Shown: one piece after another, positions 16,102 through 33,157 of the stretch
Numbering within the stretch: the stretch's first letter is position 1
Layout: every line of letters begins with the position of its first letter
DNA from: an uncultured Bacilli bacterium
Lineage (GTDB): Bacteria; Bacillota_I; Bacilli_A; RF39; UBA660
Reading direction: 5' to 3'
Length of the DNA: 33,289 nucleotides
NCBI GenBank assembly: GCA_944358435.1
Contig: CALVRD010000010.1
Span: 1-33,289 of the forward strand
Notes under the pieces: model-generated
Seen by the model: only the letters and a program-made list of their open reading frames with translations
Database searches by the model: none
Told to the model about the DNA's origin: nothing
Program-made: the position numbers and the translations under genes

Positions 16102-16404
16102 ATGGCAAGAGTATTAATGGTACAAGCTGAATTACAAGCTGCTAAGCGTGAAACTGCAGAAGGAAAACAAGCTTTTACTACTGGAGATCAAACAATTGCA
16201 AATGTAATTAATGGTGTAACAAATGGAAAAATTGGTGGTTCAGTTTCAGCAGATCTTTTAAGTGTATATGAAACTATTAAGCCAATAATAAAAGAATGTC
16301 AAAAGTTCTTTGATGAATGTGATGAGTTAATGTTAAGAGCTAACAAAGAATATGATACAACAACTGAAGATGCAGCAGCTGCACTTAATGCTAACAGATT
16401 TTAG
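16102..16404 (+). CDS. Small WXG100-like secretion protein
   Basis: This is a 100-residue, cysteine-poor helical protein with no signal peptide and the size of WXG100/ESAT-6 family members. It has two Ala/Glu-rich helices around a Gly-rich turn (NGKIGGSVSADLL) and an acidic C-terminal helix. The Trp-x-Gly signature itself is missing, and the C-terminal YDTTTED only approximates the YxxxD/E export motif. It is called WXG100-like from its length, helical layout and place at the head of this gene set. It probably forms a helical partner or substrate of a type VII machine. ATAGGAGGAAAA precedes the ATG, giving it the best ribosome site of the locus. The next small gene starts 17 bases later. Confidence 0.6.
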   Translation: MARVLMVQAELQAAKRETAEGKQAFTTGDQTIANVINGVTNGKIGGSVSADLLSVYETIKPIIKECQKFFDECDELMLRANKEYDTTTEDAAAALNANRF

Positions 16405-16421
16405 GAAGGGAGAGATATTAA

Positions 16422-16697
16422 ATGGCATATGAAAATGTAATTGTAAATGCTGAAGAAGCAGATGATGCTGCAGCACAAATTGATACAGGAATTAAAAATT
16501 TAGAAGATGGAATTAATAAATTAAATTCAGCTTTAAATAGATTTCATGGTGCTTCAGAAACTGATTGGGAAGAGAGATTCCACCAAGAATGGACTCAATT
16601 TTATACTAGTAGATTCCCAACTGCAATTGCCGCATTAAAAGGACAAGCTGCTAACTTAAGAACAGCTGCTCAAGCTGCTAGAAATCTTAATCGTTAG
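16422..16697 (+). CDS. WXG100-family-like protein
   Basis: This 91-residue helical protein has no signal peptide. Its first helix is rich in Asp, Ala and Lys (EEADDAAAQIDTGIKNLEDG) and is followed by a turn (RFHGASETDWEERF) and a second helix (WTQFYTSRFPTAIAAL, ending AAQAARNLNR). The central W-E-E-R-F and H-Q-E-W give a Trp near the turn as in WXG100 proteins, though the strict WxG triplet is absent. With the gene before it, this fits a heterodimeric pair of small helical substrates for type VII secretion. It is co-transcribed with that gene. GGAAGGGAGAG before the ATG is a strong ribosome site. Two perfect hairpins follow its stop codon. Confidence 0.65.
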   Translation: MAYENVIVNAEEADDAAAQIDTGIKNLEDGINKLNSALNRFHGASETDWEERFHQEWTQFYTSRFPTAIAALKGQAANLRTAAQAARNLNR

Positions 16698-16700
16698 AAA

Positions 16701-16753
16701 TATACATTGCTTTTGCAATGTATAGTAAATAGAAAAAGTTTTTTCTATTTACT
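16701..16753 (+). other. Two adjacent perfect RNA hairpins
   Basis: TATACATTGC pairs with GCAATGTATA around TTTT (16701-16724). Immediately after, AGTAAATAGAAAAA pairs with TTTTTCTATTTACT (16724-16753) with almost no loop. Neither is followed by a T-run, so they look like mRNA-stabilising or processing structures that could make the two upstream genes more abundant than those downstream, rather than a simple terminator. Confidence 0.6.
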
Positions 16754-16790
16754 ATGCCTTGTAAATAGGATAAAAGTAGGGAGATTGAAA

Positions 16791-17129
16791 ATGGAAGAAA
16801 ATAAAAGATTTTTGCCAATAGGTACTGTAGTAATGTTAAATGGCGGAAAAAAAGAAGTAATGATTACAAGTTATTGTATTTTTCCAACTAATAATGAAAT
16901 AAAGGATGGTCAAAGAGTTCCAGCTGAAAAGAAAGTTTATGAGTATGGTGGTTGTACATATCCAGAAGGTATAATAGATAGTAATTTAACATGTGCTTTT
17001 AATCATGATCAAATAGCTGAAGTTTTATTTATGGGTTATAAAACAGAAAAACAAACTGAGTTTTCAAAAATGTTAAATGAAGGTTATGAAAAATATAAAG
17101 ATCAATATGAAAATGGGGCTACTGAGTAG
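16791..17129 (+). CDS. DUF4176-like protein, first copy
   Basis: This is a compact 112-residue protein of the DUF4176 type found beside LXG and WXG100 genes in Bacillota. The family pattern is visible: FLPIGTVVMLNGGKKEVMI, then VYEYGGCTYPEG, FNHDQIAEVLFMGY and a C-terminal helix. No signal peptide is present, so it is probably cytoplasmic. An accessory or chaperone role toward type VII substrates is inferred from the neighbours. The start is the ATG at 16791 after GGGAGATTG; an upstream in-frame extension to 16707 covers the hairpins and is not coding. A near-identical paralogue closes the locus at 22133-22474. Confidence 0.75.
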   Translation: MEENKRFLPIGTVVMLNGGKKEVMITSYCIFPTNNEIKDGQRVPAEKKVYEYGGCTYPEGIIDSNLTCAFNHDQIAEVLFMGYKTEKQTEFSKMLNEGYEKYKDQYENGATE

Positions 17130-17236
17130 TTCTTTTTCTTTACCAAAAAATAGTATGTAAAAATCATGTAAAGTAAAATAAGAAAATATATTTATTTTAA
17201 TAAAAAAAAAATAAAAAAAAAATAACTTGATAAAAT

Positions 17237-17267
<31 letters not shown>

Positions 17268-17360
17268 TAACTTGCTTTAGCAATAGAAAAAGTCTAAAAT
17301 AATTAATATAGGGTATGCTTACAGTAGAGTATGATACAGTAAAGAAAGGGTGATAATTAT

Positions 17361-17732
17361 ATGGGATTTTCGATAACAAGTCCAGATCAAATTATTAAAA
17401 TTGAAGTTGTACGTAGAGGATGCGAAAAAATACAAAATGGAGTTGATAAGTTTGCTAAAACTGTGCAAACATTAGAGTTAGCCAGTGAATTATTAGGACA
17501 TAATAGTTTGGTATTTGGTGATATTAATTCAACTCTTGATAAGCAATTGGATTTGTTGGGAGATGATGTTAGAGCTTGTTGGAATAAGTGTGATGGTTTA
17601 GCTGATGGAATTTTAGCTCAAGCTGAGGCACAATATAAAAGCGAATGGGCAGAATATAATGCTTATTTAGCATGGCGTGCTAGCCAACAACAAAAGCAAG
17701 ATAGGTTAATGGCTTCTAAAGGGCTAAATTAA
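17361..17732 (+). CDS. Small helical protein of the secretion locus, unknown
   Basis: I do not recognise a named family. The 123 residues are predicted to be helical, with no signal peptide or membrane segment. It has the pattern GCEKIQNGVDKFAKTV, LDLLGDDVRACWNKCDG, and a Gln/Ala-rich C-terminal helix with QYKSEWAEYNAYLAW. The size, helical layout and place directly before the giant gene (29 bases) resemble the small helper proteins that accompany LXG proteins. AAGGGTGAT precedes the ATG. A 27-base poly-A tract lies about 95 bases upstream and may influence its expression together with the giant gene. Confidence 0.6.
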   Translation: MGFSITSPDQIIKIEVVRRGCEKIQNGVDKFAKTVQTLELASELLGHNSLVFGDINSTLDKQLDLLGDDVRACWNKCDGLADGILAQAEAQYKSEWAEYNAYLAWRASQQQKQDRLMASKGLN

Positions 17733-17761
17733 TAATTAGTTACAAATAATGAGGTGAAAAA

Positions 17762-20700
17762 ATGAAAAACTCAATTTTATATATACCATCATATGTTGCA
17801 GATGGAACAGGTAATCTTTTAAGTGCTAAAAGTCAATTGACTAAAATTATGGAAGAGATAGATGAAGGTATTTCTATTGTAAAATCAACAACATATAAAG
17901 GATCAATAGATTATTCACCTTCTCAAATAAGTAATGTTAGTGAAATGATGCAATCAATGAAATCTACGGTTGATACAATAGTAGAGGAAATAAGAAAATA
18001 TGATAAAGGTGGAAAGTATTACGAATATATTCCTGAAGATGTTAGAAAGCATAATAATTGGTGGACAAGAACTGGTTCAACAGTTTTATTAGGTTTATCA
18101 AAACTAGGTGAAGGAATTTTGGATACTGGTGAAACATGGGTTGATGGATGTCGTTCAATATGGCTTAATTGGAATAAAGACAAAATGACAGATGCTGAGT
18201 TTGAGGAACAACAAAAGAAAATAGCAAATGACTGGGCTGGTAGTGTATTTGAAGGAGTAAATAATTCATGGGTTGGTCAATATTCATATTTTTCTAGTGA
18301 TGGTAAAATTGCAAATGTAGTTGAAGGATTTGGAAGTATGGTTCCATATATGGCTGCTGGTATGGCTACTTCAGTTGTAACTGGTGGTATTGGTACTTTA
18401 GGTGTAGTGGGCAAAGTAGTTGCAATAGGTGGAAATATTGCCAGTGACGCTATTCTAGGTGGAATTGGTGGCCAAGGTCGTGGAACCGAAGAAGGCTTAC
18501 AAAACGGTGAAGATTGGGCAACTGCTTATGCAAGAGGTAATAAAGAAGCAGGAAAAGAAGTTGTTAGTGCAGTAGTATTTGGTGGAGTCGGTGAAGTTGC
18601 AGGAGAAGCTATTCAACATGTTAGACGTACCGGTGTTTTAAATGCTGTAGACAATGCTGCTTCGAAGGCTGCTAGTCAAGCTCTAGGGCAAGAATTAGGA
18701 GAGAGAGCAATAAGAGAATCTGCCGAAGCTGGAGCAAGGGAAGCTGCTGAGCAAATGGGCCAAGAATTAGTAGAAAATACTTTAAAACAGGCAGGAGATG
18801 AAGCAGTAAAAAAAGCTTTCCAAGAAGGTGGAGTAGAAGCTATAGAAGAACTTGGAAAGAGAGCTGCAAGAGAAGCTGGTGAGGCTGGTGCAAAAGCCAT
18901 GGCTGAGCAGGCTGGAAAAGAAGCTACTGAGAAAATTTTACGGGATGCAGGAGAACAAGCCGTAAAGGATGCTTTACAGAAAGCTGGATCAAATGGACTT
19001 TCAACCTCCGTTCAGAATTTGGTTCGAGAGACTGCTGAAAAATCAGTACAGGAAGCTGCACAACAAGCTGGGCAAGAAGCTTTCCAAAAAGCTTTAACTA
19101 AAGCTGGGGATGAGGCAGTAGAATATGTTGCTAAGAATGGTGGAAGTGCTGCTTTTCAAACTTTAGGTGAAACGGCAATAAGAAACAGTGCTAGAGAGGC
19201 TGCTTCAGCAGTTGCAGAGCAATCTGGTAAGGAATTAACAGAAAGCATTATAAAACAAGCAGGAAATGAAGCAGTACAAAATGCTACTAAGGAATCTATT
19301 TCTGAAGCTGGTGAGAAGTCTTTAAAAGAAATGTTAGGCGATGTTGCTACATCATCTAAACGAGGATATAGGGATAAGAAATTTGCAAAGGTATTTGGTA
19401 AAGATGCCATGAGTGGTGCGAACCAAGCCGCAGAACAAGCTGCAAAAGAGGCATTAGAAAATGGGTCTGGTACTATAACAAAAGAAGCATTTGAAGGTGT
19501 TCAAAATGTAGCTAAAGAAGCAATTGAAGATTCTGCTCAAAAGTCAGGTTCAAAATTTGCTAAAAGGACACTTGAAGAAGCAAGAAATAAAATGAATGCA
19601 AATGCTGATGTTGATTCAGGAGTAAGCAATAGTAGTACTCTTGATGGAAATAATGGTGGTAACACTGGTAGAAGCAATAATGGTTCTCTTGATGGAAATA
19701 ATGGTGGTACTCCTAATGGTAACAATGGTGGAATCCCTGATGGTAACAATGGTAGAATCCCTGATGGTAATAATGGTGGAATCCCTGATGGTAACAATAG
19801 TAGAATACCTGATGGTAACAATAGTAGAATACCTGATGGTAACAATAGTAGAATACCTGATGGTAACAATAGTAGAATACCTGATGGTAACAATGGTAGA
19901 ATACCTGATGGTAACAATAGTAGAATACCTGATGGTAACAATGGTAGAATACCTGATGGTAATAATGGTAGAATCCCTGATGGTAATAATGGTGGAATTT
20001 CTGGAAGCGGAAACTCCGGTAGAGGAAGCTCCGGTGGCGGAAATTCTCCTAATCAAAGGGTAATTAAGGACAGATATGGTAGAGAGACAAAGATTACGGA
20101 ATATATTGATAGTAATGGTGATGAAATAACAGATGTAATAGGTCCTAGAGGAGAAAGAACAAGGTTGACTAAAACAACAACAATAGATCCTATAACCGGC
20201 GAGAAAACTATCAATACAAGATATGATGTTCTTGATATCAATGGAAATGCTAAGCTTGATACTAATGGAAATGCTATTGTAAAGAACAAGTCTGTTGTCG
20301 AGTCAATTGATAATAATGGTGTTATAACACAAAAAATTACTTCTGATCTTGATGATGCAATAGATGTTGAAAAAACTATCACAAAAAATGGTAATACAAC
20401 GGTAACTAAAACAAAAAATGTTAATACTGGTGATGTTAGAACTAATACTCAAACATTAACACAAAAAGTTGATGGCTCAACAAGATTAAAAACAGATATT
20501 GAAATGAATGGTCAAAAGACAAATATAACATTAGATACTGATGTTAATGGAAATACTAAATCAAGATTGCAAACAGCAGATGGTAAAATTAAGACAATTA
20601 ATACAACTACTGATAATGGTGGCAATGTTAGAAGGGAAATTATAGATAGAGAGAATCTTAAAAAGAATGGAACTACAAGGAGAATTGAACAATATGATTT

Positions 20701-22090
20701 GGCTAATCATAGTAAAGCTACTACTACGATAACTCCGAAAGGAAAGATAAGTACTTTAGTTGAACAGGCAGATCTTACTTCTGGTTTAAAGCATACTGTT
20801 GGTGAAAAAGCTAATCCAAATCTTCTAAAAAATGTTACTGCTCATAAATTAGATGATTTGGGGGATATAAATATTACTAGAAAAGGAAGAAATGAATTTT
20901 TAGGTAATAGTATTCCTGATAGGCTTGGTAGAGGAAAAGAATATCTTGATGCTGGAAGAAAAGAACTTGCTGATGTATATGCAGAGCGAATGGCAAAAAA
21001 ACAGGGTACAGAAGTAACTGATCAGATTATGAAAGAAGCAACTGACAAAGCCAATAGTATTTGGCATAAATCTGCTGCTAGAAAGTTAGGAAAAGAAATT
21101 CTACAAGGTGAAGGAATTGGACATGGTTTAACTAATGCTATTACTTCATCAGCCGATGACGTTGTAAAAGCTGGTTGGAAAGAAGTTGGCAGAAGAGCCG
21201 GTATAGCTACTGGTATTGGTATAGCATCTACACCTCTTATAATTGGTGGAATATCTCAATATGATCCATTACCTGGATTAGATACAACTGATACAGTTCC
21301 AACTGATACAGTTCCAACTGATACAGTTCCAACTGATACATATCCTCCATATGATGGCCCTAGTGGCGGAGGCGGCTCTAGTGGAGGAGGCAGCTCTAGT
21401 GGAGGAGGCGGCTCTAGTGGTGGTAAAGATGATGGTGATTCAGATGATACGACAATTACTGATACAACACCTCCAGATACTACTGATAGTCTTACTCCTG
21501 ATGAAACAACAGATAATTTACCTGATGATAAACCAACTCCAACCGATACATCACCTGGTGATGGAAATAATTGGAATGGTGATGGAAATAATTGGAATGG
21601 TGGTGGAAATAATTGGAATGGTGGAGAAAATGATTTGACACCTGATGATAATCTACTTCCAGATGATGAAATTGATCCTGATGATGGTTTGAATAACGAA
21701 GATGATTTACTTGAAGATGATGACCTTGAAGGTCTTGAAGATGATGAAAGTATTTATACAATACCAATGGTTCCAGATAAGTCTTCAACTAAAGTTACAA
21801 AGGATGGAATTAATCCAATTCCAATTCTTGCTGGTTTAGGTTTAGCTGCAGCTGCTGGAGTAGGTGCTAAAATATACTTAGACAATAAGAAAAATAATGA
21901 CAACGATGAAGACGGTGATTTAGACGAAGATGATGAATTTATGTCCGATAGTGATTATGATGAATTTGCTTCATCTGATAGCGATTTAATTGCAGACGAT
22001 TGGACTGGAGAAGATAGTGAAGAAGTAGAAGAGAGCTTAGACTATGAGAAACCAAGTTTCTATAGTGATACATTGGGAGAAGAGATTTAG
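17762..22090 (+). CDS. Giant modular type VII-associated surface protein (1442 aa)
   Basis: No signal peptide is present; the first 90 residues are a helical LXG/WXG-like region. Next come a Trp-rich stretch, a hydrophobic Gly-rich segment (186-235) and the motif GGQGRGTEEGLQNG, a layout seen in pre-toxin regions of polymorphic toxins. Residues 298-610 are Ala/Glu/Lys helical repeats (AREAAEQ, QAGDEAVKKA, REAGEAGAKA). Residues 658-745 are eleven copies of the octapeptide IPDGNNxx. About 768-1006 is a beta-rich RHS-like region with T-K-T and D-x-N-G repeats. A helical region, a hydrophobic stretch (1147-1165) and low-complexity linkers (TDTVP, GGGSS, GNNWNG, acidic) follow. The last part has one membrane segment (about 1350-1373) and a 70-residue acidic tail. 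No toxin catalytic motif and no LPXTG are seen, so it may be an anchored adhesin or an apparatus-linked protein. It follows a small gene by 29 bases. Function is unknown. Confidence 0.7.
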   Translation: MKNSILYIPSYVADGTGNLLSAKSQLTKIMEEIDEGISIVKSTTYKGSIDYSPSQISNVSEMMQSMKSTVDTIVEEIRKYDKGGKYYEYIPEDVRKHNNWWTRTGSTVLLGLSKLGEGILDTGETWVDGCRSIWLNWNKDKMTDAEFEEQQKKIANDWAGSVFEGVNNSWVGQYSYFSSDGKIANVVEGFGSMVPYMAAGMATSVVTGGIGTLGVVGKVVAIGGNIASDAILGGIGGQGRGTEEGLQNGEDWATAYARGNKEAGKEVVSAVVFGGVGEVAGEAIQHVRRTGVLNAVDNAASKAASQALGQELGERAIRESAEAGAREAAEQMGQELVENTLKQAGDEAVKKAFQEGGVEAIEELGKRAAREAGEAGAKAMAEQAGKEATEKILRDAGEQAVKDALQKAGSNGLSTSVQNLVRETAEKSVQEAAQQAGQEAFQKALTKAGDEAVEYVAKNGGSAAFQTLGETAIRNSAREAASAVAEQSGKELTESIIKQAGNEAVQNATKESISEAGEKSLKEMLGDVATSSKRGYRDKKFAKVFGKDAMSGANQAAEQAAKEALENGSGTITKEAFEGVQNVAKEAIEDSAQKSGSKFAKRTLEEARNKMNANADVDSGVSNSSTLDGNNGGNTGRSNNGSLDGNNGGTPNGNNGGIPDGNNGRIPDGNNGGIPDGNNSRIPDGNNSRIPDGNNSRIPDGNNSRIPDGNNGRIPDGNNSRIPDGNNGRIPDGNNGRIPDGNNGGISGSGNSGRGSSGGGNSPNQRVIKDRYGRETKITEYIDSNGDEITDVIGPRGERTRLTKTTTIDPITGEKTINTRYDVLDINGNAKLDTNGNAIVKNKSVVESIDNNGVITQKITSDLDDAIDVEKTITKNGNTTVTKTKNVNTGDVRTNTQTLTQKVDGSTRLKTDIEMNGQKTNITLDTDVNGNTKSRLQTADGKIKTINTTTDNGGNVRREIIDRENLKKNGTTRRIEQYDLANHSKATTTITPKGKISTLVEQADLTSGLKHTVGEKANPNLLKNVTAHKLDDLGDINITRKGRNEFLGNSIPDRLGRGKEYLDAGRKELADVYAERMAKKQGTEVTDQIMKEATDKANSIWHKSAARKLGKEILQGEGIGHGLTNAITSSADDVVKAGWKEVGRRAGIATGIGIASTPLIIGGISQYDPLPGLDTTDTVPTDTVPTDTVPTDTYPPYDGPSGGGGSSGGGSSSGGGGSSGGKDDGDSDDTTITDTTPPDTTDSLTPDETTDNLPDDKPTPTDTSPGDGNNWNGDGNNWNGGGNNWNGGENDLTPDDNLLPDDEIDPDDGLNNEDDLLEDDDLEGLEDDESIYTIPMVPDKSSTKVTKDGINPIPILAGLGLAAAAGVGAKIYLDNKKNNDNDEDGDLDEDDEFMSDSDYDEFASSDSDLIADDWTGEDSEEVEESLDYEKPSFYSDTLGEEI
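19733..19996 (+). repeat. 11 tandem copies of a 24-base coding repeat
   Basis: Each 24-base unit encodes IPDGNN followed by GR, SR or GG. Eleven units run without interruption, and more degenerate GNNGG units lie just before them. Units differ mainly at one or two bases, so the array probably changes length by slippage or recombination. It lies between the helical and beta-rich parts of the giant protein and should form an extended linker. Confidence 0.9.
21287..21340 (+). repeat. 15-base repeat encoding TDTVP
   Basis: ACTGATACAGTTCCA occurs three times in tandem (21287-21331) with a partial fourth copy, giving a Thr/Asp/Pro linker after the second hydrophobic segment of the giant protein. 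Confidence 0.85.
21560..21622 (+). repeat. 21-base repeat encoding GNNWNG
   Basis: Three tandem 21-base units, each with GGAAATAATTGGAATGGT, encode D/G-GNNWNG. They lie in the acidic linker before the C-terminal membrane segment of the giant protein. Confidence 0.85.
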
Positions 22091-22132
22091 GCTAAGCCTC
22101 AATCTGCTTTTACATAGAAAAGGAGTGAAAAG

Positions 22133-22474
22133 ATGAAAGAGAGATTTTTACCAATAGGTTCAGTTGTAATGCTTAATGGAGGAAAAAAAGAAGTAATGAT
22201 TACGAGTTACTGTATTTTTCCAACAAATAATGAAATAAAGGATGGACAAAGAGTACCAGCTGAAAAAAAAGTTTATGAATATGGAGGCTGTACTTATCCA
22301 GAAGGTATAATAGATAGTAATTTGACATGTGCATTTAATCATAATCAAATTGCTGAAGTATTATATATGGGTTATGAAACAGAAAAGCAAGCTGAATTTT
22401 CAAAAATGTTAAATGAAGGTTACGAAAAATATAAGGAGCAATTTGAAAACGGAGAAGGAGAAACACAACAATAG
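22133..22474 (+). CDS. DUF4176-like protein, second copy
   Basis: This 113-residue protein matches the copy at 16791-17129 at all but about seven positions over the shared 100 residues (for example FLPIGSVVML against FLPIGTVVML, FNHNQI against FNHDQI). The genes differ at many silent sites, so the protein is under selection and the duplication is not very recent. It lies 42 bases after the giant gene, behind AAAAGGAGTG, and closes the locus with a terminator that overlaps its stop codon. A role as chaperone or accessory factor for the giant protein is inferred from position. Confidence 0.75.
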   Translation: MKERFLPIGSVVMLNGGKKEVMITSYCIFPTNNEIKDGQRVPAEKKVYEYGGCTYPEGIIDSNLTCAFNHNQIAEVLYMGYETEKQAEFSKMLNEGYEKYKEQFENGEGETQQ

Positions 22475-24039: not shown

Positions 24040-24070
24040 AAAGATTGTTGTTACACAATCTTTTTTTTTA
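24040..24070 (+). terminator. Terminator between the hypothetical gene and cotZ-like genes
   Basis: AGATTGT pairs with ACAATCT around a 6-base loop, followed by nine T. The run of A before the stem makes it usable from the opposite strand as well. Confidence 0.8.
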
Positions 24071-24469
24071 GCATAATTCTATGAATGTATCAGGAAGACA
24101 TTTAATGGCACCTATACATTTTAAATCAATTGTAAAGAATTCATTTGTTCCAGCATATTTATTTTCTTCTTCATTAAAATATAATATTCTAAATGTAGCG
24201 CAATCTTCATCTAAACATTCAATTCTAAATACTGTTGATTGATTTGTTCTACTATTAATTGTGTATGGAAAACTCCAAGGATTTCCTGTACAACAATTAA
24301 ATAGCGTTATTGGTCTTGTATTGTAGCAGATATTATTACATACTGGTCCTAAATATGGTTTATCACAACCAGTATGACATTCATTATCAAAATCTTGTCT
24401 TTGTAATAATAATATTTTTCTTAGTAATTCGTTTAAGCAATTAAAGTCTTTTTCTTTATCTTCACACAT
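24068..24469 (-). CDS. CotY/CotZ-family spore coat protein, first copy
   Basis: This is a Cys-rich 133-residue protein of the CotY/CotZ kind, which forms the disulfide-linked crust or outer coat of spores. The marks are CHTGCDKPYLGP, then RPITLFNCCTG, VFRIECLDEDCATFRIL and TIDLKCIGAIKCLPD near the end. A CotZ-like order of C-x3-C and the C-x-G-A-I-K-C motif are conserved. It is in the same direction as the second copy at 24485-24853 and 15 bases from it, so the pair is one operon. GGAGGTT before the ATG is a good ribosome site. Expression in the mother cell is inferred from the family, and I could not identify a clean sigma-E or sigma-K promoter. Confidence 0.87.
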   Translation of the reverse strand: MCEDKEKDFNCLNELLRKILLLQRQDFDNECHTGCDKPYLGPVCNNICYNTRPITLFNCCTGNPWSFPYTINSRTNQSTVFRIECLDEDCATFRILYFNEEENKYAGTNEFFTIDLKCIGAIKCLPDTFIELC

Positions 24470-24484
24470 AATAAAACCTCCTTT

Positions 24485-24853
24485 CTATAGATTTGAAACA
24501 ATTGTATCTTCTATACATTTAATAGCACATATACAGTTTAATTTTACTGTTATAAAGTTATTTGTTGAGATATAACAATTGTCTTTTAGCTCTAATACTC
24601 TTAAAGTAACACAGTCATCAAATACTTTTTCAACTCTAAAAAATGAACTATTATAATTATCATTATTAGTACTAAGTAGAGTGCCATTCTTAGTATATAA
24701 AGTAATAACCCTAGTATTATAACAAATATGATTAATATCGGGACCTAAGTAAGGTTTACTACAACCATCTTCTAGAGGACAAATATTTTCAGAATTTTTT
24801 TGTAATATGCAAATAAGTTTTAGTAAGTTCTTAATACAACGATTTGTTTTCAT
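24485..24853 (-). CDS. CotY/CotZ-family spore coat protein, second copy
   Basis: A divergent paralogue of the next gene shares its key blocks: DGCSKPYLGPDI, RVITLYT, FFRVEKVFDDCVTLRVLEL and VKLNCICAIKCIEDT. The N-terminal Cys-rich part is shorter. The start chosen is the ATG at 24851-24853 after GAGGTGG; an in-frame GTG at 24862 lies inside that site. It is the first gene of the two-gene coat operon and is divergent from the EIIB-like gene. The two coat paralogues probably assemble together in the spore surface layer, as CotY and CotZ do in B. subtilis. Confidence 0.85.
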   Translation of the reverse strand: MKTNRCIKNLLKLICILQKNSENICPLEDGCSKPYLGPDINHICYNTRVITLYTKNGTLLSTNNDNYNSSFFRVEKVFDDCVTLRVLELKDNCYISTNNFITVKLNCICAIKCIEDTIVSNL

Positions 24854-25004
24854 AGTCTCCACCTCTTTATCTATTTCTAATATAAAGTATTCATAACTTC
24901 TTAATTGGTGTTTATAAATACCTATATAATAATATGATATTAGCTGGTTAATTAATCTCTTTCTTTTTCTTTTTATTTGTTATATAATTAGATTGGTGAT
25001 AAGA

Positions 25005-26966: not shown

Positions 26967-27050
26967 TAGCTTCACTCCTTCATAGTAATTTATGTGATTT
27001 AAAAGAAATGTGTGAGAAGTTTTTAATGGATAAAGTTTTATATTTAATTT

Positions 27051-27467
27051 GAAGGTGTGATAAATAAACGTAAAATATATATAGAAGTAGATAAAAATTT
27101 TGAATAATAAGTTGGAAGCAGTAGCAAATTTATTTGAAGAAAATGAAATATATATAGTATGGTTCGGTATGCAAGCTTCTCAATATAGTCGCTTTTAAGG
27201 AGATTAGAAAATAATCTTAAGAGATAATATGATTGATATAGAAGTAGTTCTTACTGATTCAGATGAGGTTGCGACTAGAGAATTGGCTAAGAAACATAAA
27301 TCATATGGATTAGAGCAGAATAGAAAAATCGCTAAGATGGTGGTAATGTTTTTAAAGTAGCAAGGAATAATTTAGAATAAAAGTTAGGTAGAGCTGTTGT
27401 TAGTGGTTAAAATTTATTAAATTATGAATATATTGATGAAAAACGTTTGGGAGAAAAAGATAAATAG
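27051..27467 (+). pseudogene. Decayed coding remnant, several frames
   Basis: The 620-base interval between 26966 and 27591 holds no intact gene but has protein-like pieces. The first is VINKRKIYIEVDKNFE before two stops. The second is KLEAVANLFEENEIY in another frame (about 27105-27198). The third begins MIDIEVVLTDSDEVATREL at 27229 and shifts frame near 27336. The last is DGGNVFKVARNNLE, stop, KLGRAVVSG, stop, NLLNYEYIDEKRLGEKDK, ending at a TAG at 27465-27467. The GG-N-x-x-K-x-A-R-x-x-LE...LGR-x-V-V segment resembles the middle of DinD or BRO-type proteins, but the match is weak. At least one frameshift and three in-frame stops make it a pseudogene. Confidence 0.5.
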
Positions 27468-27533
27468 TAGAGTAAAAAATACAATATAAATAGGATGAAT
27501 ATGTGACTTGAAAGACACTATAATTAGTTCAAT

Positions 27534-27562
27534 TTGACATTTTCCTTATTTTATGATATAAT
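27534..27562 (+). promoter_or_regulatory. Near-consensus sigma-A promoter
   Basis: TTGACA (27534-27539) and TATAAT (27557-27562) are both perfect and 17 bases apart, 28 bases before the ATG at 27591. It is the best promoter in the window, although the gene it drives is interrupted. Confidence 0.9.
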
Positions 27563-27590
27563 CCGTCTTAATCAAATGGGGGTAATTGTT

Positions 27591-27884
27591 ATGAATACAA
27601 ATGAATTAGAAGAATTTAAAATTAAACAAATCGAAAGAAACAAAAAAGATATTAAAATAGTAGGAGTTGCAGCTTTCCTTGAGCTAGCTGGTGCAGGATT
27701 CTTTGCCGCTAGTGCAATTATGACTCCAAACCCAGTATCTTTTAATCTTTTTGCGATGGCATGTGCTGGAACTGTAATACCGGCTATACTTTATTTAAAA
27801 CAGTTAAAAGAAATGAAAGAAGATAACAAAAAAATAGCATCTCTAAAAACAGAAGCTGATTTTGAAGAGTATAAAGTAAAATGA
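27591..27884 (+). CDS. Two-span membrane protein ending at an in-frame TGA
   Basis: The 97 codons encode a charged N-terminus (ELEEFKIKQIERNKK), two hydrophobic segments (VGVAAFLELAGAGFFAAS and FAMACAGTVIPAILYL) and a charged tail. The ATG follows GGGGGTAAT and the near-consensus promoter; a longer frame to 27534 lies inside the promoter. The stop at 27882-27884 is TGA, the only TGA that ends an open frame in this window. The same frame then continues for 90 more codons with a second pair of hydrophobic stretches (27885-28157). A full product of about 188 residues with a repeated layout is therefore possible. I do not recognise the family. Confidence 0.6.
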   Translation: MNTNELEEFKIKQIERNKKDIKIVGVAAFLELAGAGFFAASAIMTPNPVSFNLFAMACAGTVIPAILYLKQLKEMKEDNKKIASLKTEADFEEYKVK

Positions 27885-28157
27885 ATTGAGATTTGTAAAC
27901 GAAAAGTTGATAGTGCTCAGAAAATTGATGATAGAAATACAGCTATTGCGCTTAGTAATGCATTAGTTGCTTTAAGTTTTTCTTTATGTGACGCATTCCA
28001 ATTTGTTGCACCTTTTGAAGTTTTATCATTAATTGGTCTTAATGCATCAATTCAAGCATCAATCATCAAAGATCATTATCAGAATGAATTAAATAGATTA
28101 ACTTTTAAAGAAGAAAAAGCTTATACTAAGACTAAAGAACTTAATCGTGGATATTAA
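27885..28157 (+). pseudogene. In-frame continuation beyond TGA of the gene at 27591
   Basis: After the TGA the frame encodes IEICKRKVDSAQKIDD, a hydrophobic segment (NALVALSFSLCDAFQF), a second hydrophobic stretch (FEVLSLIGLNASIQ) and a charged tail ending at a TAA (28155-28157). It has no start codon or ribosome site of its own near the beginning. The coding-like composition over 90 codons suggests either a recent TGG-to-TGA change or read-through of TGA. Which one applies cannot be told here. Confidence 0.5.
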
Positions 28158-28215
28158 TTCTAAGATTAATAAGAGTTTCTATTAAAAAAGGTTATAAAGG
28201 GGAATAAATAAAGCT

Positions 28216-28479
28216 ATGAATATTAATATCAATGATAAAGTTACATTGAGTAATGATAGAAAATATGTAGTAATAAGTAAAATTGAACATGAAGGAGTTA
28301 TCTACTATTATTTAGTCGATGAAGATAGTAAAACAGATATAAAAATTTGTTTTGAAAATGTTGCTAATCAGTCATTAATTCAGATTAAAAATCCAGAAAT
28401 GATTGCTGAACTTTTTCCAATATTTTTAAAGAAATCACAAGAATATATTGCTGATTTAATTGTAAATAGTGAAATATAA
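28216..28479 (+). CDS. Hypothetical protein (87 aa)
   Basis: A small cytoplasmic protein of unknown family. The first half looks like a beta-rich domain (DKVTLSNDRKYVVISKIEH, then GVIYYYLVDEDSKT), and the second half is helical (PEMIAELFPIFLKKSQEYI). Its layout resembles small single-domain beta proteins often left as hypotheticals in Bacillota. AAAGGGGAA lies about 13 bases before the ATG, a long spacing. A terminator follows, and the kinase-fold array begins 71 bases later. Confidence 0.6.
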   Translation: MNININDKVTLSNDRKYVVISKIEHEGVIYYYLVDEDSKTDIKICFENVANQSLIQIKNPEMIAELFPIFLKKSQEYIADLIVNSEI

Positions 28480-28488
28480 TAATATGAG

Positions 28489-28528
28489 GCAAGGGTTATT
28501 ATATTAAAATTAACTCTTGCTTTTATTG
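28489..28528 (+). terminator. Terminator before the kinase-fold array
   Basis: GCAAGGGTTA pairs with TAACTCTTGC (one G-T pair) around a 12-base loop, followed by TTTTATT. Confidence 0.65.
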
Positions 28529-28550
28529 TATTTTTGAGGAGTTAGTACTT

Positions 28551-29293
28551 ATGAATAGAATGCCAAATATTGAGCTTACTAGATTTGAACTTGAAATGTT
28601 AGAAGCTAGAAGATCTTATAAGACAGGTGGAGAAGGATCAATTTATTTTAGTGATAGTGGCACTTTATGTAAAATATTTATTGATCCATATTCTAAGCGG
28701 TTTATTGGGATGTCTGAAAATAAATTTGAAAAGATAGTTAGACTTTATCAAGAACCGTTAGATTATAGTGTAAAACCTTTAAGTACTATTAGCAGTAATG
28801 GTAGATTACTTGGTTATGAAATGGAAAGAAAGCCAAATTATAAACCATTGTCTGTATTTATGTATAGAAAAGAATTGATTTTTTATTTGAAAGAAATTAA
28901 GTCAATTCTTGAATACTATGCTTCTAAAGATATAACTTATGGAGATATAAAATTAAATAATATTTTAATTAATCGGCGTAGTCATGAAGTTATGTTTTGT
29001 GATATGGATAATATTCGTTTAGGAAAATATCCAATTGATTTAGTGGGCATAACTTGGAAGATTTTATTGATGGTTATGGTAGAGCTGATGAGGTAGCAGA
29101 TATTTATATGCATAATTTATTAACTTTAAAATGTTTAAATTATAAAGGAGATAGTTATAGTAATATTTTATGTGGTATAAAAGATGGAACTTATCCTACA
29201 CGTTTTGAAAAGTCAGCTTTACCAACTATTAAGAGTATGATAGATCCAGCTAATTTTACAGGAGAATATATAATTCAGTATGTAAAAAAATAA
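28551..29293 (+). pseudogene. Kinase-fold paralogue 1, frameshifted
   Basis: The first of five tandem paralogues. The first frame encodes the conserved order of a protein-kinase-like fold: GGEGSIYFS (Gly-rich loop), LCKIF (Lys), LLGYEM, DITYGDIKLNNIL (catalytic Asp and Asn) and FCDMDNIRLG (metal-binding Asp). At about 29046, in GTGGGCAT, one base appears to have been lost relative to its paralogues. The original frame then runs to a TAG at 29094-29096, whereas the shifted frame carries the rest (HNLEDFIDGYG, then YMHNLLTLKCLN, GEYIIQYVKK) to 29293. It could be a true pseudogene, a base-call error or a site of frameshifting. GAGGAG lies before the ATG. Confidence 0.75.
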
Positions 29294-29317
29294 AACAGGG
29301 GAAAGAAGTGAATTAAT

Positions 29318-30067
29318 ATGAAAAGAATACCTAATATCACTTTTACTGATGAAGAGTATCAAGCTTTTTTTCAGAAAGTAAAATTCCGTGGTGGTGAAGC
29401 AATAATTTGTTCCAGTGATAAGCCTAATACCTTGTATAAGATTTTTTATGATGAAGTAGCAGCATCTTGTTTAATGTCTGATAATAAACTAAAAAAAATA
29501 GCAGAAATTTATCGTCGAAATATTCCTTACTGTGTAAAGCCAATTAGGACAATTAGTTATGAGGGAAGATTAATTGGCTATGAGGTTTCTTATGATTCTT
29601 TAGATAAATCATTAGAAAGTTTAGATGATTTAGATAGAAAAGACGTTATTAAAATTTTACGTGCTACTAGAGATATTTTAAAGAATTATGAGGTCCTTGA
29701 TATTACTTATGGTGATGTTACAAGTGATAATATTTTAGTAAATATAAAAACAGGAAAAGTAACTTTTTGTGATATAGATAATATTAGACTTGGAGTATAT
29801 CCAGCTGATGTGAAAGGTTTTAGTTTGACAAGATATTATGAGAAAACGGGAGTAATTGATGCTAAGGCAGATGCTTATATGCATAATTTATTGACTATAA
29901 AAAGTTTACAATATGGTAAAGATTCTTATGAGTCAGAAATTATGAAAGATTTAAAAAGAGGACTTTATCCTACGAGATTTAAGCAAGGGGCTAGAGAAAT
30001 TTTTGCTAGTATGGTAATGCCTGAAAGATTTAATGGTAAATATGCAATTGAGTATGTTAAGCGGTAA
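29318..30067 (+). CDS. Kinase-fold paralogue 2
   Basis: This 249-residue protein shows the minimal elements of a protein-kinase-like fold. They are GGEA (residues 25-28), Lys41 in LYKIF, the hinge-like LIGYEV, Asp133 and Asn138 in DITYGDVTSDN, and Asp152 in FCDIDNIRLG, where canonical kinases have DFG. The Asp-to-Asn distance of five and the Asp-to-Asp distance of about 19 match true kinases. The HRD motif reads TYGD. An array-specific C-terminal motif (AYMHNLLT..., AIEYVKR) follows. I cannot assign a substrate; protein kinase, small-molecule kinase or pseudokinase are all possible. It is 24 bases after paralogue 1, behind GAAAGAAGTGA. Confidence 0.7.
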   Translation: MKRIPNITFTDEEYQAFFQKVKFRGGEAIICSSDKPNTLYKIFYDEVAASCLMSDNKLKKIAEIYRRNIPYCVKPIRTISYEGRLIGYEVSYDSLDKSLESLDDLDRKDVIKILRATRDILKNYEVLDITYGDVTSDNILVNIKTGKVTFCDIDNIRLGVYPADVKGFSLTRYYEKTGVIDAKADAYMHNLLTIKSLQYGKDSYESEIMKDLKRGLYPTRFKQGAREIFASMVMPERFNGKYAIEYVKR

Positions 30068-30070
30068 TTG

Positions 30071-30099
30071 TTGAAAAAATCTTAAAAATATGATATAAT
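30071..30099 (+). promoter_or_regulatory. Promoter between paralogues 2 and 3
   Basis: TTGAAA (30071-30076) and TATAAT (30094-30099) are 17 bases apart and lie 25 bases before the start of paralogue 3. The array therefore has an internal start and is not one transcript only. Confidence 0.8.
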
Positions 30100-30124
30100 A
30101 TGCCTACTAATGGGGATGGTTAGT

Positions 30125-30880
30125 ATGAAGAGAATGCCTAATATCAATTTTAATTATCGTGATTGTTGTGACATAGTTTATAGTCAAAGATTTAGTGTGG
30201 GTGGGGAAGCATTTATTTGTTTTAGCGATAAATCAAATACTTTATATAAAATATTTATTAATCCTAAGACTGGTGAAATAATTGAAATGTCCGATAATAA
30301 ATTTAAAAAGATTAAATCTCTTTATGAAAAAAATTTGGAACATAGTGTTAGACCACTTGCAACAATTAGCGTGAATGGTAAATTAGTAGGTTATGAAATG
30401 ACTTATGATTTAATGGATATTCCTTTAGATCAAGCACGTTTAAATAGAGTTCAAATGATTGATGCTTTGGAAGATACAAAAAAAGTTTTATTATATTTTA
30501 CAAGTAAAGATATAACTTATGGGGATATTAAAAGTAATAATATTTTGATTAATAGAGCAACAGGTAATATTTCGTTTTGTGATATGGATAATATTAGAAT
30601 GGGAAACTATTCAATGGATTTAATAGGAAAGGATTTAAAAAAATATATACAAATGCATGGTGGATTAGATGAAACTGCTGTTGCTTATATGCATAATTTT
30701 TTATCTTTACAGCAGTTAGGATTTCCAAGTAAGTATACTTCTTATGAGGGAATAATTATAACACTTAATAATAAAGTATATCCAAATGGCTTTGATGATT
30801 ATGCTAAAGTAATATTAGATAGTATGACTAATCCAAAAGAATTTACTGGCGAATATGCAATTCAATATGTTAAAAAGTAA
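30125..30880 (+). CDS. Kinase-fold paralogue 3
   Basis: This 251-residue paralogue keeps the fold marks: GGEAFICFS, K42 in YKIF, the LVGYEM hinge, D134 and N139 in DITYGDIKSNN, and D153 in FCDMDNIRMG. Its C-terminal module contains AYMHNFLSLQQLG and ends with GEYAIQYVKK, the ending shared by the array. The start is the ATG at 30125 after GGGGATGG; in-frame ATGs at 30110 and 30116 precede that site. It has its own promoter at 30071-30099. Its target is unknown. Confidence 0.7.
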   Translation: MKRMPNINFNYRDCCDIVYSQRFSVGGEAFICFSDKSNTLYKIFINPKTGEIIEMSDNKFKKIKSLYEKNLEHSVRPLATISVNGKLVGYEMTYDLMDIPLDQARLNRVQMIDALEDTKKVLLYFTSKDITYGDIKSNNILINRATGNISFCDMDNIRMGNYSMDLIGKDLKKYIQMHGGLDETAVAYMHNFLSLQQLGFPSKYTSYEGIIITLNNKVYPNGFDDYAKVILDSMTNPKEFTGEYAIQYVKK

Positions 30881-30896
30881 CTACTGGAGGATAAGT

Positions 30897-31652
30897 ATGA
30901 ATAGAATACCAAATATTAAACTTGAGTGGGATGAGTATCAAAAAATAATAAGTTGTCAAAGATACTCTGCTGGTTTTGAATCTATAATTTGTAAGACAGG
31001 GGAGCAAAATAGTTTATATAAATTTTTTTGCGATTCTTTTAAAAAAAATTTTCCTTATATGTCTAATAACAAATTACAAAAAGTTTCTAAGTTATATGAA
31101 ATGCAACTTCCTTATTCAGTGCAGCCACTAGCAACTGTTACTGCGGGAAATTATTTAGTAGGTTATAAAATGACTTATGATCCAAATAATATTTCATTAA
31201 GTAGAGCTAATTTACCTAGAAGAGAAATTATAGATGTTTTAAAAAGGACTAAGACAATCTTAGAATACTTTGCGATTAGAGATATAACATATGGTGATAT
31301 TAGAGAAGATAATATTTTATTTAATACTGTTACTGGTGAAATTTTATTTTGTGATATGGATAATATTCGTTTAGGGGAGTATCCAATAGACTTAAAACTT
31401 CTTTGTCTTGCTGATTTTGTAAAAAAATATGGTAAAGTAGATGAGAAAACTGATGCTTATATACATAATTTACTTACTTTACAATTATTAAATTCACATT
31501 GGGTATTGCCACCAATAGAATGGGTAGATGAAAAGCTTAGAATTGATTTTTTTTCAAGTGATTTTGAAAGACCGGCTATATCAATATTAGAAAGTATGGT
31601 TGATCAAAAAAATTTTACTGGAGAATATATAGTTCAATATGTTAAAAAGTAA
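30897..31652 (+). CDS. Kinase-fold paralogue 4
   Basis: This 251-residue paralogue keeps K42 (LYKFF), D134 and N139 (DITYGDIREDN) and D153 (FCDMDNIRLG). The Gly-rich loop reads AGFESIIC instead of GGEA, so nucleotide binding may be weaker here. A 47-base block (31122-31168) is identical to paralogue 5, which points to recent duplication or gene conversion. The start is the ATG at 30897 after TGGAGGAT; an in-frame ATG at 30855 lies within paralogue 3. It is 16 bases after paralogue 3 and 19 bases before paralogue 5. Confidence 0.7.
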   Translation: MNRIPNIKLEWDEYQKIISCQRYSAGFESIICKTGEQNSLYKFFCDSFKKNFPYMSNNKLQKVSKLYEMQLPYSVQPLATVTAGNYLVGYKMTYDPNNISLSRANLPRREIIDVLKRTKTILEYFAIRDITYGDIREDNILFNTVTGEILFCDMDNIRLGEYPIDLKLLCLADFVKKYGKVDEKTDAYIHNLLTLQLLNSHWVLPPIEWVDEKLRIDFFSSDFERPAISILESMVDQKNFTGEYIVQYVKK

Positions 31653-31671
31653 TTAATGGGGGTTGGAAATT

Positions 31672-32427
31672 ATGAAAATAATACCAAATATTAGATTAGA
31701 TTGGAATCAATATTATCAAATTGCTCAAGAACAAAGAATTAATTATGGTGGAGAGTCTGTTATTTGTAAGACAGGAGAAAATAATAGTTTGTATAAGTTT
31801 TTTTACGATCCAATATCAAATCATTTAATGGATATGTCTGGTAACAAATTACAAAAAATAGCAGAATTATATAAAATGAATCTTTCTTTTGCAGTACAGC
31901 CACTAGCAACTGTTACTGCGGGAAATTATTTAGTAGGTTATAAGATGACTTATAATCCACGACACATCTCTTTAAAAAAAGCTAAATTATCTAGAGAAGA
32001 AGCTATTGAAGTATTAAAAAAAAGTAAGACTGCTTTGGAATACTTTGCATCAAGAGATATAACTTATGGTGATGTTAGAAAATCTAATGTTTTATTAGAT
32101 CCGTCTACCGGAGAAATAGAATTTTGTGATATGGATAATATTCGTTTAGGAGAATATCCAATTGATTTAAAAATTCCAAGTTTGAAGAAATTTGTAGAAA
32201 GTTATGGTACAATAGATGAGAAGGCTGATGCTTATGTACATAATTTAATGACTTTACAATTATTAAATTTCCCTTGGGAAGAATCAAGATATGGCTGGAT
32301 AATTGAAATGCTTAAACTTGGTGTTTATCCAGAAGAATTTGAAGAATCAGCTGATTGTATATTTGAAAGTATGACTAAGCCAGAACAATTTAATGGGGAA
32401 TATGCTATTCAATATATTAAAAGATAA
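31672..32427 (+). CDS. Kinase-fold paralogue 5
   Basis: This 251-residue protein keeps GGESVIC, K42 (LYKFF), D134 and N139 (DITYGDVRKSN) and D153 (FCDMDNIRLG), and ends GEYAIQYIKR. It is closest to paralogue 4. The start is the ATG at 31672 after GGGGGTTGG; an in-frame TTG at 31663 overlaps that site. It is ten bases from the RluB gene, with which it may be co-transcribed. Confidence 0.7.
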   Translation: MKIIPNIRLDWNQYYQIAQEQRINYGGESVICKTGENNSLYKFFYDPISNHLMDMSGNKLQKIAELYKMNLSFAVQPLATVTAGNYLVGYKMTYNPRHISLKKAKLSREEAIEVLKKSKTALEYFASRDITYGDVRKSNVLLDPSTGEIEFCDMDNIRLGEYPIDLKIPSLKKFVESYGTIDEKADAYVHNLMTLQLLNFPWEESRYGWIIEMLKLGVYPEEFEESADCIFESMTKPEQFNGEYAIQYIKR

Positions 32428-32437
32428 GAGGTGAAAT

Positions 32438-33157
32438 ATGGAACGTTTACAAAAAGTAATAGCAAAATCAGGAGTTGCTTCGAGAAGAAAAGCAGAAGAA
32501 CTTATTATTGAAGGGAAAGTAAAAGTTAATGGAAATATTGTTACAGAATTAGGTACTAAGGTATCTGATAAAGATAAAATTGAAGTAAATAATAAGATTA
32601 TAGAAAAAGAGGTAAAAGAATACTATCTTTTAAATAAACCAAGAGGTGTAGTTACAACAACAACTGATGATAAAAATAGAAAGACGGTTATTGATTTAAT
32701 TCCTACTAATGCAAGAATTTATCCAGTAGGAAGATTAGATTATGATACAACAGGAGCATTACTTTTGACAAATGATGGGGATTTTGCTAATATTTTGATG
32801 CATCCAAAACATGAAATTGAAAAAGTTTATGTTGCTAAAATAAAAGGTATTATTAAGGGTGAACAAATTAATAAGTTAAAAGATGGTGTAGAAATAGAAG
32901 AAGATGTTTTTGTTAAAGCAGTTAGAGTTAAATTAAAGAAGAGTGATATTAAAACCAATACTAGTATGATTCAAATAACTATTACAGAAGGAAAAAATCA
33001 TCAAGTTAAAAGAATGTTTGAAGCAGTAGGGTTTGAAGTAATAAAATTAAAAAGAGAAAAAATTGCTTTTTTTGATTTAAAAGATTTAGCTTCTGGTGAG
33101 TATCGGAAATTGACTCCAAAAGAAGTTAGTAAAGTATATAGTTTAGATGTTAAATAA
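32438..33157 (+). CDS. rluB: RluB-family ribosomal pseudouridine synthase
   Basis: An N-terminal S4 RNA-binding domain (ERLQKVIAKSGVASRRKAEELI) is followed by the RsuA/RluB-type catalytic domain. The catalytic Asp is in GRLDYDTTG (YPVGRLDYD), and other marks are LLNKPRGVVTT and ITEGKNHQVKRMF. RluB converts U2605 of 23S rRNA to pseudouridine, whereas RsuA acts on 16S rRNA; the S4 domain, length (239) and RluB-like motifs favour RluB. AAGAGGTGAAAT lies before the ATG. It follows paralogue 5 by ten bases and is ended by a terminator. Confidence 0.93.
   Translation: MERLQKVIAKSGVASRRKAEELIIEGKVKVNGNIVTELGTKVSDKDKIEVNNKIIEKEVKEYYLLNKPRGVVTTTTDDKNRKTVIDLIPTNARIYPVGRLDYDTTGALLLTNDGDFANILMHPKHEIEKVYVAKIKGIIKGEQINKLKDGVEIEEDVFVKAVRVKLKKSDIKTNTSMIQITITEGKNHQVKRMFEAVGFEVIKLKREKIAFFDLKDLASGEYRKLTPKEVSKVYSLDVK

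What the first reader, a model, noticed from the sequence alone, without database searches (positions are those of the whole stretch)
28551..32427. Tandem array of five kinase-fold paralogues
Five genes in a row encode about 250-residue proteins that all start MxRxPNI or close to it, keep Lys, Asp-x4-Asn and Asp at kinase spacing (TYGD...N and CDMDN), and end with a shared Y(V/I)K(K/R). The HRD and DFG motifs are replaced by TYGD and D(M/I)D, so they form a distinctive family rather than ordinary Hanks kinases. Such expansion is common where proteins recognise diverse partners.
Basis: partly seen in the sequence, partly recalled or inferred. Interest (0 to 1): 0.75.

Follow-up and report, generated by a model that had tools for sequence, protein, structure and literature searches.

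The report
Tandem array of compact bacterial kinases
A gut-type Bacilli genome carries five side-by-side copies of a small, probably active protein kinase that belongs to the known Hanks superfamily, closest to an odd branch with an altered DFG motif, and that has been duplicated and diversified at one chromosomal spot in this lineage; its substrates are unknown.

Summary
The array is real: five paralogues (about 250 aa, 40-59% identical) in a row, followed by rluB. One correction: copy 1 is broken by a 1-nt frameshift near 29050, leaving four intact genes. AlphaFold gives a confident kinase fold (pLDDT 90.7) whose best PDB matches are protein kinases. Across 74 homologues beta3-Lys, catalytic Asp, Asn and metal-binding Asp are essentially invariant, so these are active-type kinases. 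They are not apart from Hanks kinases: a family profile reaches them by sequence. The closest relatives are TerY-P/YegI-type kinases, which share a Gly-rich-loop Glu, an alphaC Lys instead of Glu, GYxM, xGD and DxD; their VWA/PP2C partners and C-terminal domains are absent. The family is patchy in this taxonomic family (92/386 genomes); a single copy beside rluB occurs in four genera, the array (2-7 copies) in two. Sub-lineages are shared between species but evolve 2-5 times faster (dN) than flanking genes, with birth, loss and possible gene conversion. Most likely: soluble Ser/Thr protein kinases with diversified partners. Links to type VII secretion or phage defence were looked for and not established. 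A modestly interesting, unnamed variant of a known kind.

The parts
28551..29293 (+). Copy 1, frameshifted: ORF 28551-29096 (N-lobe, catalytic loop, DMD) plus ORF 29054-29293 (alphaF to C-terminus) in another frame
   Evidence: profile hits 1-172 and 167-251 in different frames
29318..30067 (+). Copy 2, intact kinase, 249 aa; orthologue of L007 copy 4 and L008 copy 6
30071..30099 (+). Promoter-like site TTGAAA-17-TATAAT with extended TG, before copy 3 (11 of 12 matches; consensus match only)
30125..30880 (+). Copy 3, intact kinase, 251 aa; structure predicted; orthologue of L008 copy 7
30897..31652 (+). Copy 4, intact kinase, 251 aa; most recent duplicate pair with copy 5
31672..32427 (+). Copy 5, intact kinase, 251 aa; 59% identical to copy 4, with one 47-nt identical stretch
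32438..33157 (+). rluB-like pseudouridine synthase (S4 + PseudoU_synth_2), 10 bp after copy 5; fixed right-hand neighbour of the locus in several genera
28489..28520 (+).
   Evidence: sequence

Best explanation
A lineage-specific tandem expansion of compact, soluble, catalytically competent Hanks-superfamily protein kinases of the DxD (TerY-P/YegI-like) branch. SHOWN by computation: kinase fold; conserved ATP/Mg/catalytic residues; array monophyly; single-copy homologue at the same rluB locus in other genera; paralogue sub-lineages shared between species; fast divergence under overall purifying selection. INFERRED: each binds MgATP through K42 and D153 (second Asp D155 replacing the DFG Gly), uses D134/N139 for transfer of the gamma phosphate to Ser/Thr of proteins, needs no activation-loop phosphorylation (no Arg before the catalytic Asp), and the copies differ in substrate or partner because the variable stretches lie in alphaN, the beta3-alphaC linker, hinge-alphaD, the segment before alphaF and alphaF-alphaG, while catalytic core and both termini are shared. 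The physiological pathway is not identified.
For: AF2 model with 21 array sequences: mean pLDDT 90.7, pTM 0.80. Foldseek PDB: best hits IRAK4, MK2, LCK, JAK2, E down to 8e-9, prob 1.00, TM about 0.5-0.57. K42 73/74, D134 74/74, N139 74/74, D153 74/74, D155 72/74. 34/47 members hit Pkinase. Family profile vs PDB sequences: 1492 distinct sequences at E<=0.1, best 4.1e-12 (CDKL3). hhalign of the family against TerY-P-like kinases 9.6e-21, YegI set 3.9e-17, HRD/DFG kinases 1.1e-16. Array clade 100/99 support. Orthologous copies 53-58% identical between species of the window genus where RluB is 79-82% (M29 is 87% between the two other species); dN/dS about 0.2-0.4. Entropy 0.8-1.1 bits in core and C-terminus against 2.3-2.6 in the loops named.
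Against: No activity, substrate or expression data. TM-scores to solved kinases are only about 0.55 with high rmsd, so the C-lobe differs. Loops vary in any protein family, so the entropy pattern is weak evidence for diversified recognition. No conserved phosphatase, receptor or substrate gene beside the family; neighbours outside the rluB locus change from genus to genus. A small-molecule acceptor cannot be excluded.
Confidence: 0.6

Rival explanations
1. Phage-defence or stress-triggered kinases: like the kinase of TerY-P modules or PD-T4-6, each copy responds to an invader or stress and phosphorylates host or phage proteins to halt growth; copies multiply and diverge in an arms race.
For: Nearest relatives by profile are TerY-P-type kinases, and TerY-P-like modules act in antiphage defence (PMC11090510, citing Gao et al. 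2020). Weak PADLOC hits to PD-T4-6 (best 5.7e-5). Fast divergence, copy-number change, a broken copy and a possible conversion tract.
Against: No VWA, PP2C, nuclease or other defence gene beside the array; fixed housekeeping locus between M29 peptidase and rluB; no relative in viral contigs, phages or plasmids at the sensitivity used; PADLOC matches cover only the catalytic loop, as for any kinase.
Confidence: 0.15
2. Small-molecule phosphotransferases (APH-like), for instance detoxifying several natural products, one per copy.
For: xGD catalytic motif and DxD resemble APH more than HRD/DFG (sequence; general knowledge of the families); tandem expansion would suit chemical diversity.
Against: One of 47 members hits APH, 34 hit Pkinase; PDB fold hits are protein kinases; profile links to protein kinases.
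Confidence: 0.1
3. Kinases that act with the type VII secretion system: the genome has EssC, and WXG100/DUF4176 modules lie about 6 kb from the array.
For: EssC on contig C5 (1005 bits); WXG100-like and DUF4176 genes at window 16422-17129 and 22133-22474; DUF4176 within about 8 kb of a family kinase in eight genomes at the rluB locus, and about 3 kb away at an independent locus in G399 and G338.
Against: By genome, co-occurrence is near chance: 34 genomes have both, about 26 expected from 92 and 110 of 386 (my count); the physical linkage is essentially one inherited locus; housekeeping genes lie between; kinases without DUF4176 are common; no LXG/WXG targeting domain on the kinases.
Confidence: 0.08
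4. Pseudokinases or decaying genes: a degenerating array, of which copy 1 is the first casualty.
For: Copy 1 is frameshifted; dN/dS of the recent pair copy 4/copy 5 is about 0.6.
Against: Catalytic residues are invariant in the other arrays and in distant homologues; other arrays intact; dN/dS 0.2-0.4 between orthologues.
Confidence: 0.04

Closest known systems
TerY-P / YegI-type bacterial Ser/Thr kinases (E. coli YegI, TerY-P triads)
   Same: Gly-rich-loop GGE, beta3 K(I/V)(Y/F), conserved alphaC Lys and no conserved alphaC Glu, G(Y/F)xM after beta5, xGD-x4-N, D-x-D in place of DFG; collinear profile match
   Different: DxDN here, DxDS there; no conserved (A/P)PE and no subdomain XI Arg; no C-terminal HhH/Zn-ribbon/OB domain; no VWA and PP2C genes alongside; one domain of about 250 aa; tandem arrays
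Classical Hanks-type kinases (PrkC/PknB; PF00069)
   Same: Fold, beta3 Lys, catalytic Asp and Asn, metal Asp, alphaF Asp; 34/47 members match PF00069
   Different: HRD to YGD, DFG to D(M/I/L)D, no alphaC Glu, no APE, no transmembrane or PASTA part; the genome also has a separate PrkC-like kinase beside a PP2C gene
PD-T4-6 defence kinases
   Same: Weak match over the catalytic loop
   Different: No full-length similarity, no defence context
Kinase domain of class III/IV lanthionine synthetases (LanKC, LanL)
   Same: Weak match over the catalytic loop; E. coli YegI gives the same kind of weak match
   Different: No lyase or cyclase domain, no precursor peptide seen

Membership tests
Hanks-type protein kinase superfamily (PF00069) | Bilobal protein-kinase fold | tested here: met
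   AF2 pLDDT 90.7; PDB hits to protein kinases, E to 8e-9
Hanks-type protein kinase superfamily (PF00069) | beta3 Lys, catalytic Asp, Asn, metal-binding Asp | tested here: met
   73-74 of 74
Hanks-type protein kinase superfamily (PF00069) | alphaC Glu | tested here: not met
   no conserved Glu in alphaC; N58, K59, K62 conserved instead
Hanks-type protein kinase superfamily (PF00069) | HRD and DFG motifs as such | tested here: not met
   YGD and D(M/I/L)D
Hanks-type protein kinase superfamily (PF00069) | APE motif and subdomain XI Arg | tested here: not met
   no such invariant columns in A2 or A3
Hanks-type protein kinase superfamily (PF00069) | Score of the window proteins above the Pfam gathering cut-off | tested here: not met
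   11.8-23.8 bits or no hit against 31.7
Hanks-type protein kinase superfamily (PF00069) | Ser/Thr phosphotransfer | not testable with these tools
   needs assay
TerY-P / YegI-type kinase | GGE loop, alphaC Lys, GYxM, xGD, DxD signature | tested here: met
TerY-P / YegI-type kinase | VWA and PP2C genes in the same operon | tested here: not met
   present beside all ten plasmid YegI-type kinases inspected (in one the VWA-position gene is annotated only as hypothetical), absent here; the only PP2C_2 hit in the genome is next to the PrkC-like gene
TerY-P / YegI-type kinase | C-terminal accessory domain (Zn ribbon, OB, HhH) | tested here: not met
   protein ends after the kinase domain, 249-251 aa
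APH-type phosphotransferase | Similarity to PF01636 | tested here: not met
   1 of 47 members at E<=0.01, none of the window copies
Kdo/WaaP kinase | Similarity to PF06293 | tested here: not met
   1 of 47 members at 0.0019
PD-T4-6 defence kinase | Full-length profile match | tested here: not met
   only about 45-60 residues around the catalytic loop

The most novel reading that the evidence does not exclude
An unnamed clade of minimal kinases in which the usual beta3-Lys/alphaC-Glu ion pair is rebuilt from a Gly-rich-loop Glu and an alphaC Lys, expanded into fast-evolving tandem arrays that serve as a conflict or self-recognition repertoire (against phages, or for type VII secretion substrates) in tiny-genome gut Bacilli.
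Probability: 0.12. Interest if true: 0.75.

Novelty: new variant of a known kind. Interest (0 to 1): 0.4.

Why it matters
Tandem expansion of soluble kinases is unexpected in a genome of 1.24 Mb. Four to five active-type kinases of equal length with diverged surfaces, beside a single-copy form in sister genera, would make a clean system for asking how bacterial kinase specificity diversifies. The signature shared with TerY-P kinases (no alphaC Glu, alphaC Lys, loop Glu, DxD) also defines a testable variant of the kinase active site. If ordinary, it still gives an annotation for genes that no curated family model searched here calls.

Tried and rejected
Viral contigs, phage records and plasmids: no relatives found. 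PHROGs and NCBIfam: nothing above noise for the kinases. Phage-defence reading: only catalytic-loop PADLOC matches, no context. Type VII secretion link: followed through EssC, WXG100 and DUF4176 counts; co-occurrence 34 genomes against about 26 expected, linkage mostly one inherited locus, so not established. Genes between the last two kinase copies of L008 (318 and 353 aa) were tested as possible extra kinases: no match. Programmed frameshift in copy 1: no slippery heptamer seen at the junction; real decay or assembly error cannot be told apart. M29 peptidase, the usual left neighbour, is missing from the window and from the genome as held. Literature: no paper found on this family.
Full report
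OBSERVATION. Six-frame ORFs give, on the + strand, 28551-29096 and 29054-29293 (one gene split between two frames), 29318-30067, 30125-30880, 30897-31652 and 31672-32427, then an rluB-like gene at 32438-33157. With copy 2 as query the others match at 40-47% identity, copies 3-5 over full length, copy 1 in two pieces. The four intact copies share 249-251 aa, the start M-x-x-(I/M)-PNI, GxE, YK(I/F)F, MSxNKxxK, GYxxxY, DITYGDxxxxN, FCD(M/I)DNIR and Y(V/I)K(K/R). Copy 1 loses frame near 29050-29056. Intergenic gaps are 10-57 bp, each with a G-rich Shine-Dalgarno-like stretch; a near-consensus extended promoter-like site lies before copy 3.

FOLD AND CATALYSIS. AlphaFold2 on copy 3 with 21 array members: pLDDT 90.7, pTM 0.80. 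Foldseek against the PDB returns only protein kinases among the rows listed, led by IRAK4, with TM about 0.55. In 74 homologues of at least 200 aa, K42 is kept in 73, D134 in 74, N139 in 74, D153 in 74, D155 in 72, N156 in 61. AlphaC has no conserved Glu but N58 (59), K59 (65), K62 (69); the Gly-rich loop has E28 (65). An alphaF-type Asp, D186 (60 of 74; Val in copy 3 itself), lies 33 residues after D153. This is an active-type kinase with an altered N-lobe ion network, not a pseudokinase; activity itself is inferred.

RELATIVES. Individual window proteins score below the Pkinase cut-off, but 34 of 47 members of a family alignment match PF00069, and the family profile matches PDB kinase sequences directly. 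Profile comparison: TerY-P-like kinases recovered from the phylum 9.6e-21, YegI and plasmid homologues 3.9e-17, HRD/DFG kinases 1.1e-16. The first and third sets were picked by the family's own profile and are small, so the ranking is indicative, not proof; what tells is the shared set of unusual residues: GGE, K, alphaC Lys, G(Y/F)xM, GD, DxD. TerY-P triads consist of a VWA protein, a PP2C phosphatase and such a kinase with a C-terminal extra domain, and TerY-P-like modules have been reported as antiphage systems (PMC11090510). Here the VWA and PP2C partners and the extra domain are absent. That YegI-type kinases are the TerY-P kinases rests on their VWA-PP2C-kinase gene order.

DISTRIBUTION AND HISTORY. 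92 of 386 genomes of the taxonomic family have a match at 1e-5 with the 21-row profile, against two genomes outside it in a class-wide sample of 395; those two match much longer proteins, which read as TerY-P-type kinases. With the broader profile the phylum search mostly recovers other Hanks kinases. No relatives were found in phage, plasmid or viral-contig collections. At the M29 peptidase-rluB locus the window genus has 5, 5 and 7 copies (one of the window's broken), a second genus 2, 3 and 3, and four further genera a single copy. In a maximum-likelihood tree all array members form one clade (100/99) that also holds two dispersed paralogues of the second genus; copy 2 and copy 3 have orthologues in other species, copies 4 and 5 are a local duplicate pair. 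Orthologous copies are 53-58% identical between species whose RluB is 79-82% identical; M29, absent from the window genome, is 87% identical between the other two species of the genus. dN is two to five times that of the flanking genes for the same species pairs. dN/dS between orthologues is roughly 0.2-0.4, and about 0.6 for copies 4/5, which share one 47-nt identical run, a possible conversion tract. Many dS values exceed 1 and are only rough.

MECHANISM. Best supported: soluble Ser/Thr protein kinases, constitutively competent (no Arg before the catalytic Asp), whose core and termini are kept while the alphaN, beta3-alphaC, alphaD, pre-alphaF and alphaG stretches vary. That the variable faces choose partners is inference, and weak, since loops vary in most families. 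No partner gene is conserved: outside the rluB locus the neighbours are ordinary genes that change from genus to genus. The own genome also carries a PrkC-like kinase beside a PP2C gene and another HRD/DFG kinase, so a general phosphatase is available.

LINKS TESTED. Type VII secretion genes lie near the array but genome-level co-occurrence is near chance (34 against about 26 expected; my count) and the linkage is mainly one inherited locus. Defence: no context. Small-molecule phosphotransfer: little sequence support.

VERDICT. A real tandem array of compact, active-type Hanks-superfamily kinases, a variant of the TerY-P/YegI-like branch, unnamed in the family libraries searched, with lineage-specific birth-and-death evolution and unknown substrates. 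Interest moderate.

Noticed in passing
window 16102-22474: Type VII secretion-like module: WXG100-like protein (16422-16697), two 91%-identical DUF4176 proteins (16707-17129 and 22133-22474) flanking a 1442-aa, locally high-GC protein (17762-22090); EssC is elsewhere in the genome (C5).
   Followed up: partly
window 28551-29293: Copy 1 of the array is frameshifted by one base near 29050-29056 with no slippery site seen; decay or assembly error.
   Followed up: partly
L008:8858-10876: Two helical, low-complexity proteins (318 and 353 aa) sit between copies 6 and 7 of the L008 array; a homologue of the first lies after rluB in L007, followed by another such gene. Possibly secretion-related; no Pfam match above cut-off.
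   Followed up: partly
window 26976-28550: The M29 aminopeptidase that precedes the array in sister species is missing here and from the genome as held; two small ORFs of unknown function take its place.
   Followed up: yes
window 27534-27562: Perfect 12/12 sigma-70-like promoter match with extended TG (TTGACA-17-TATAAT) upstream of a small membrane-protein-like ORF.
   Followed up: no
window 24068-24862: Two adjacent - strand paralogues (133 and 125 aa) conserved beside the locus in related genomes; function unknown.
   Followed up: no
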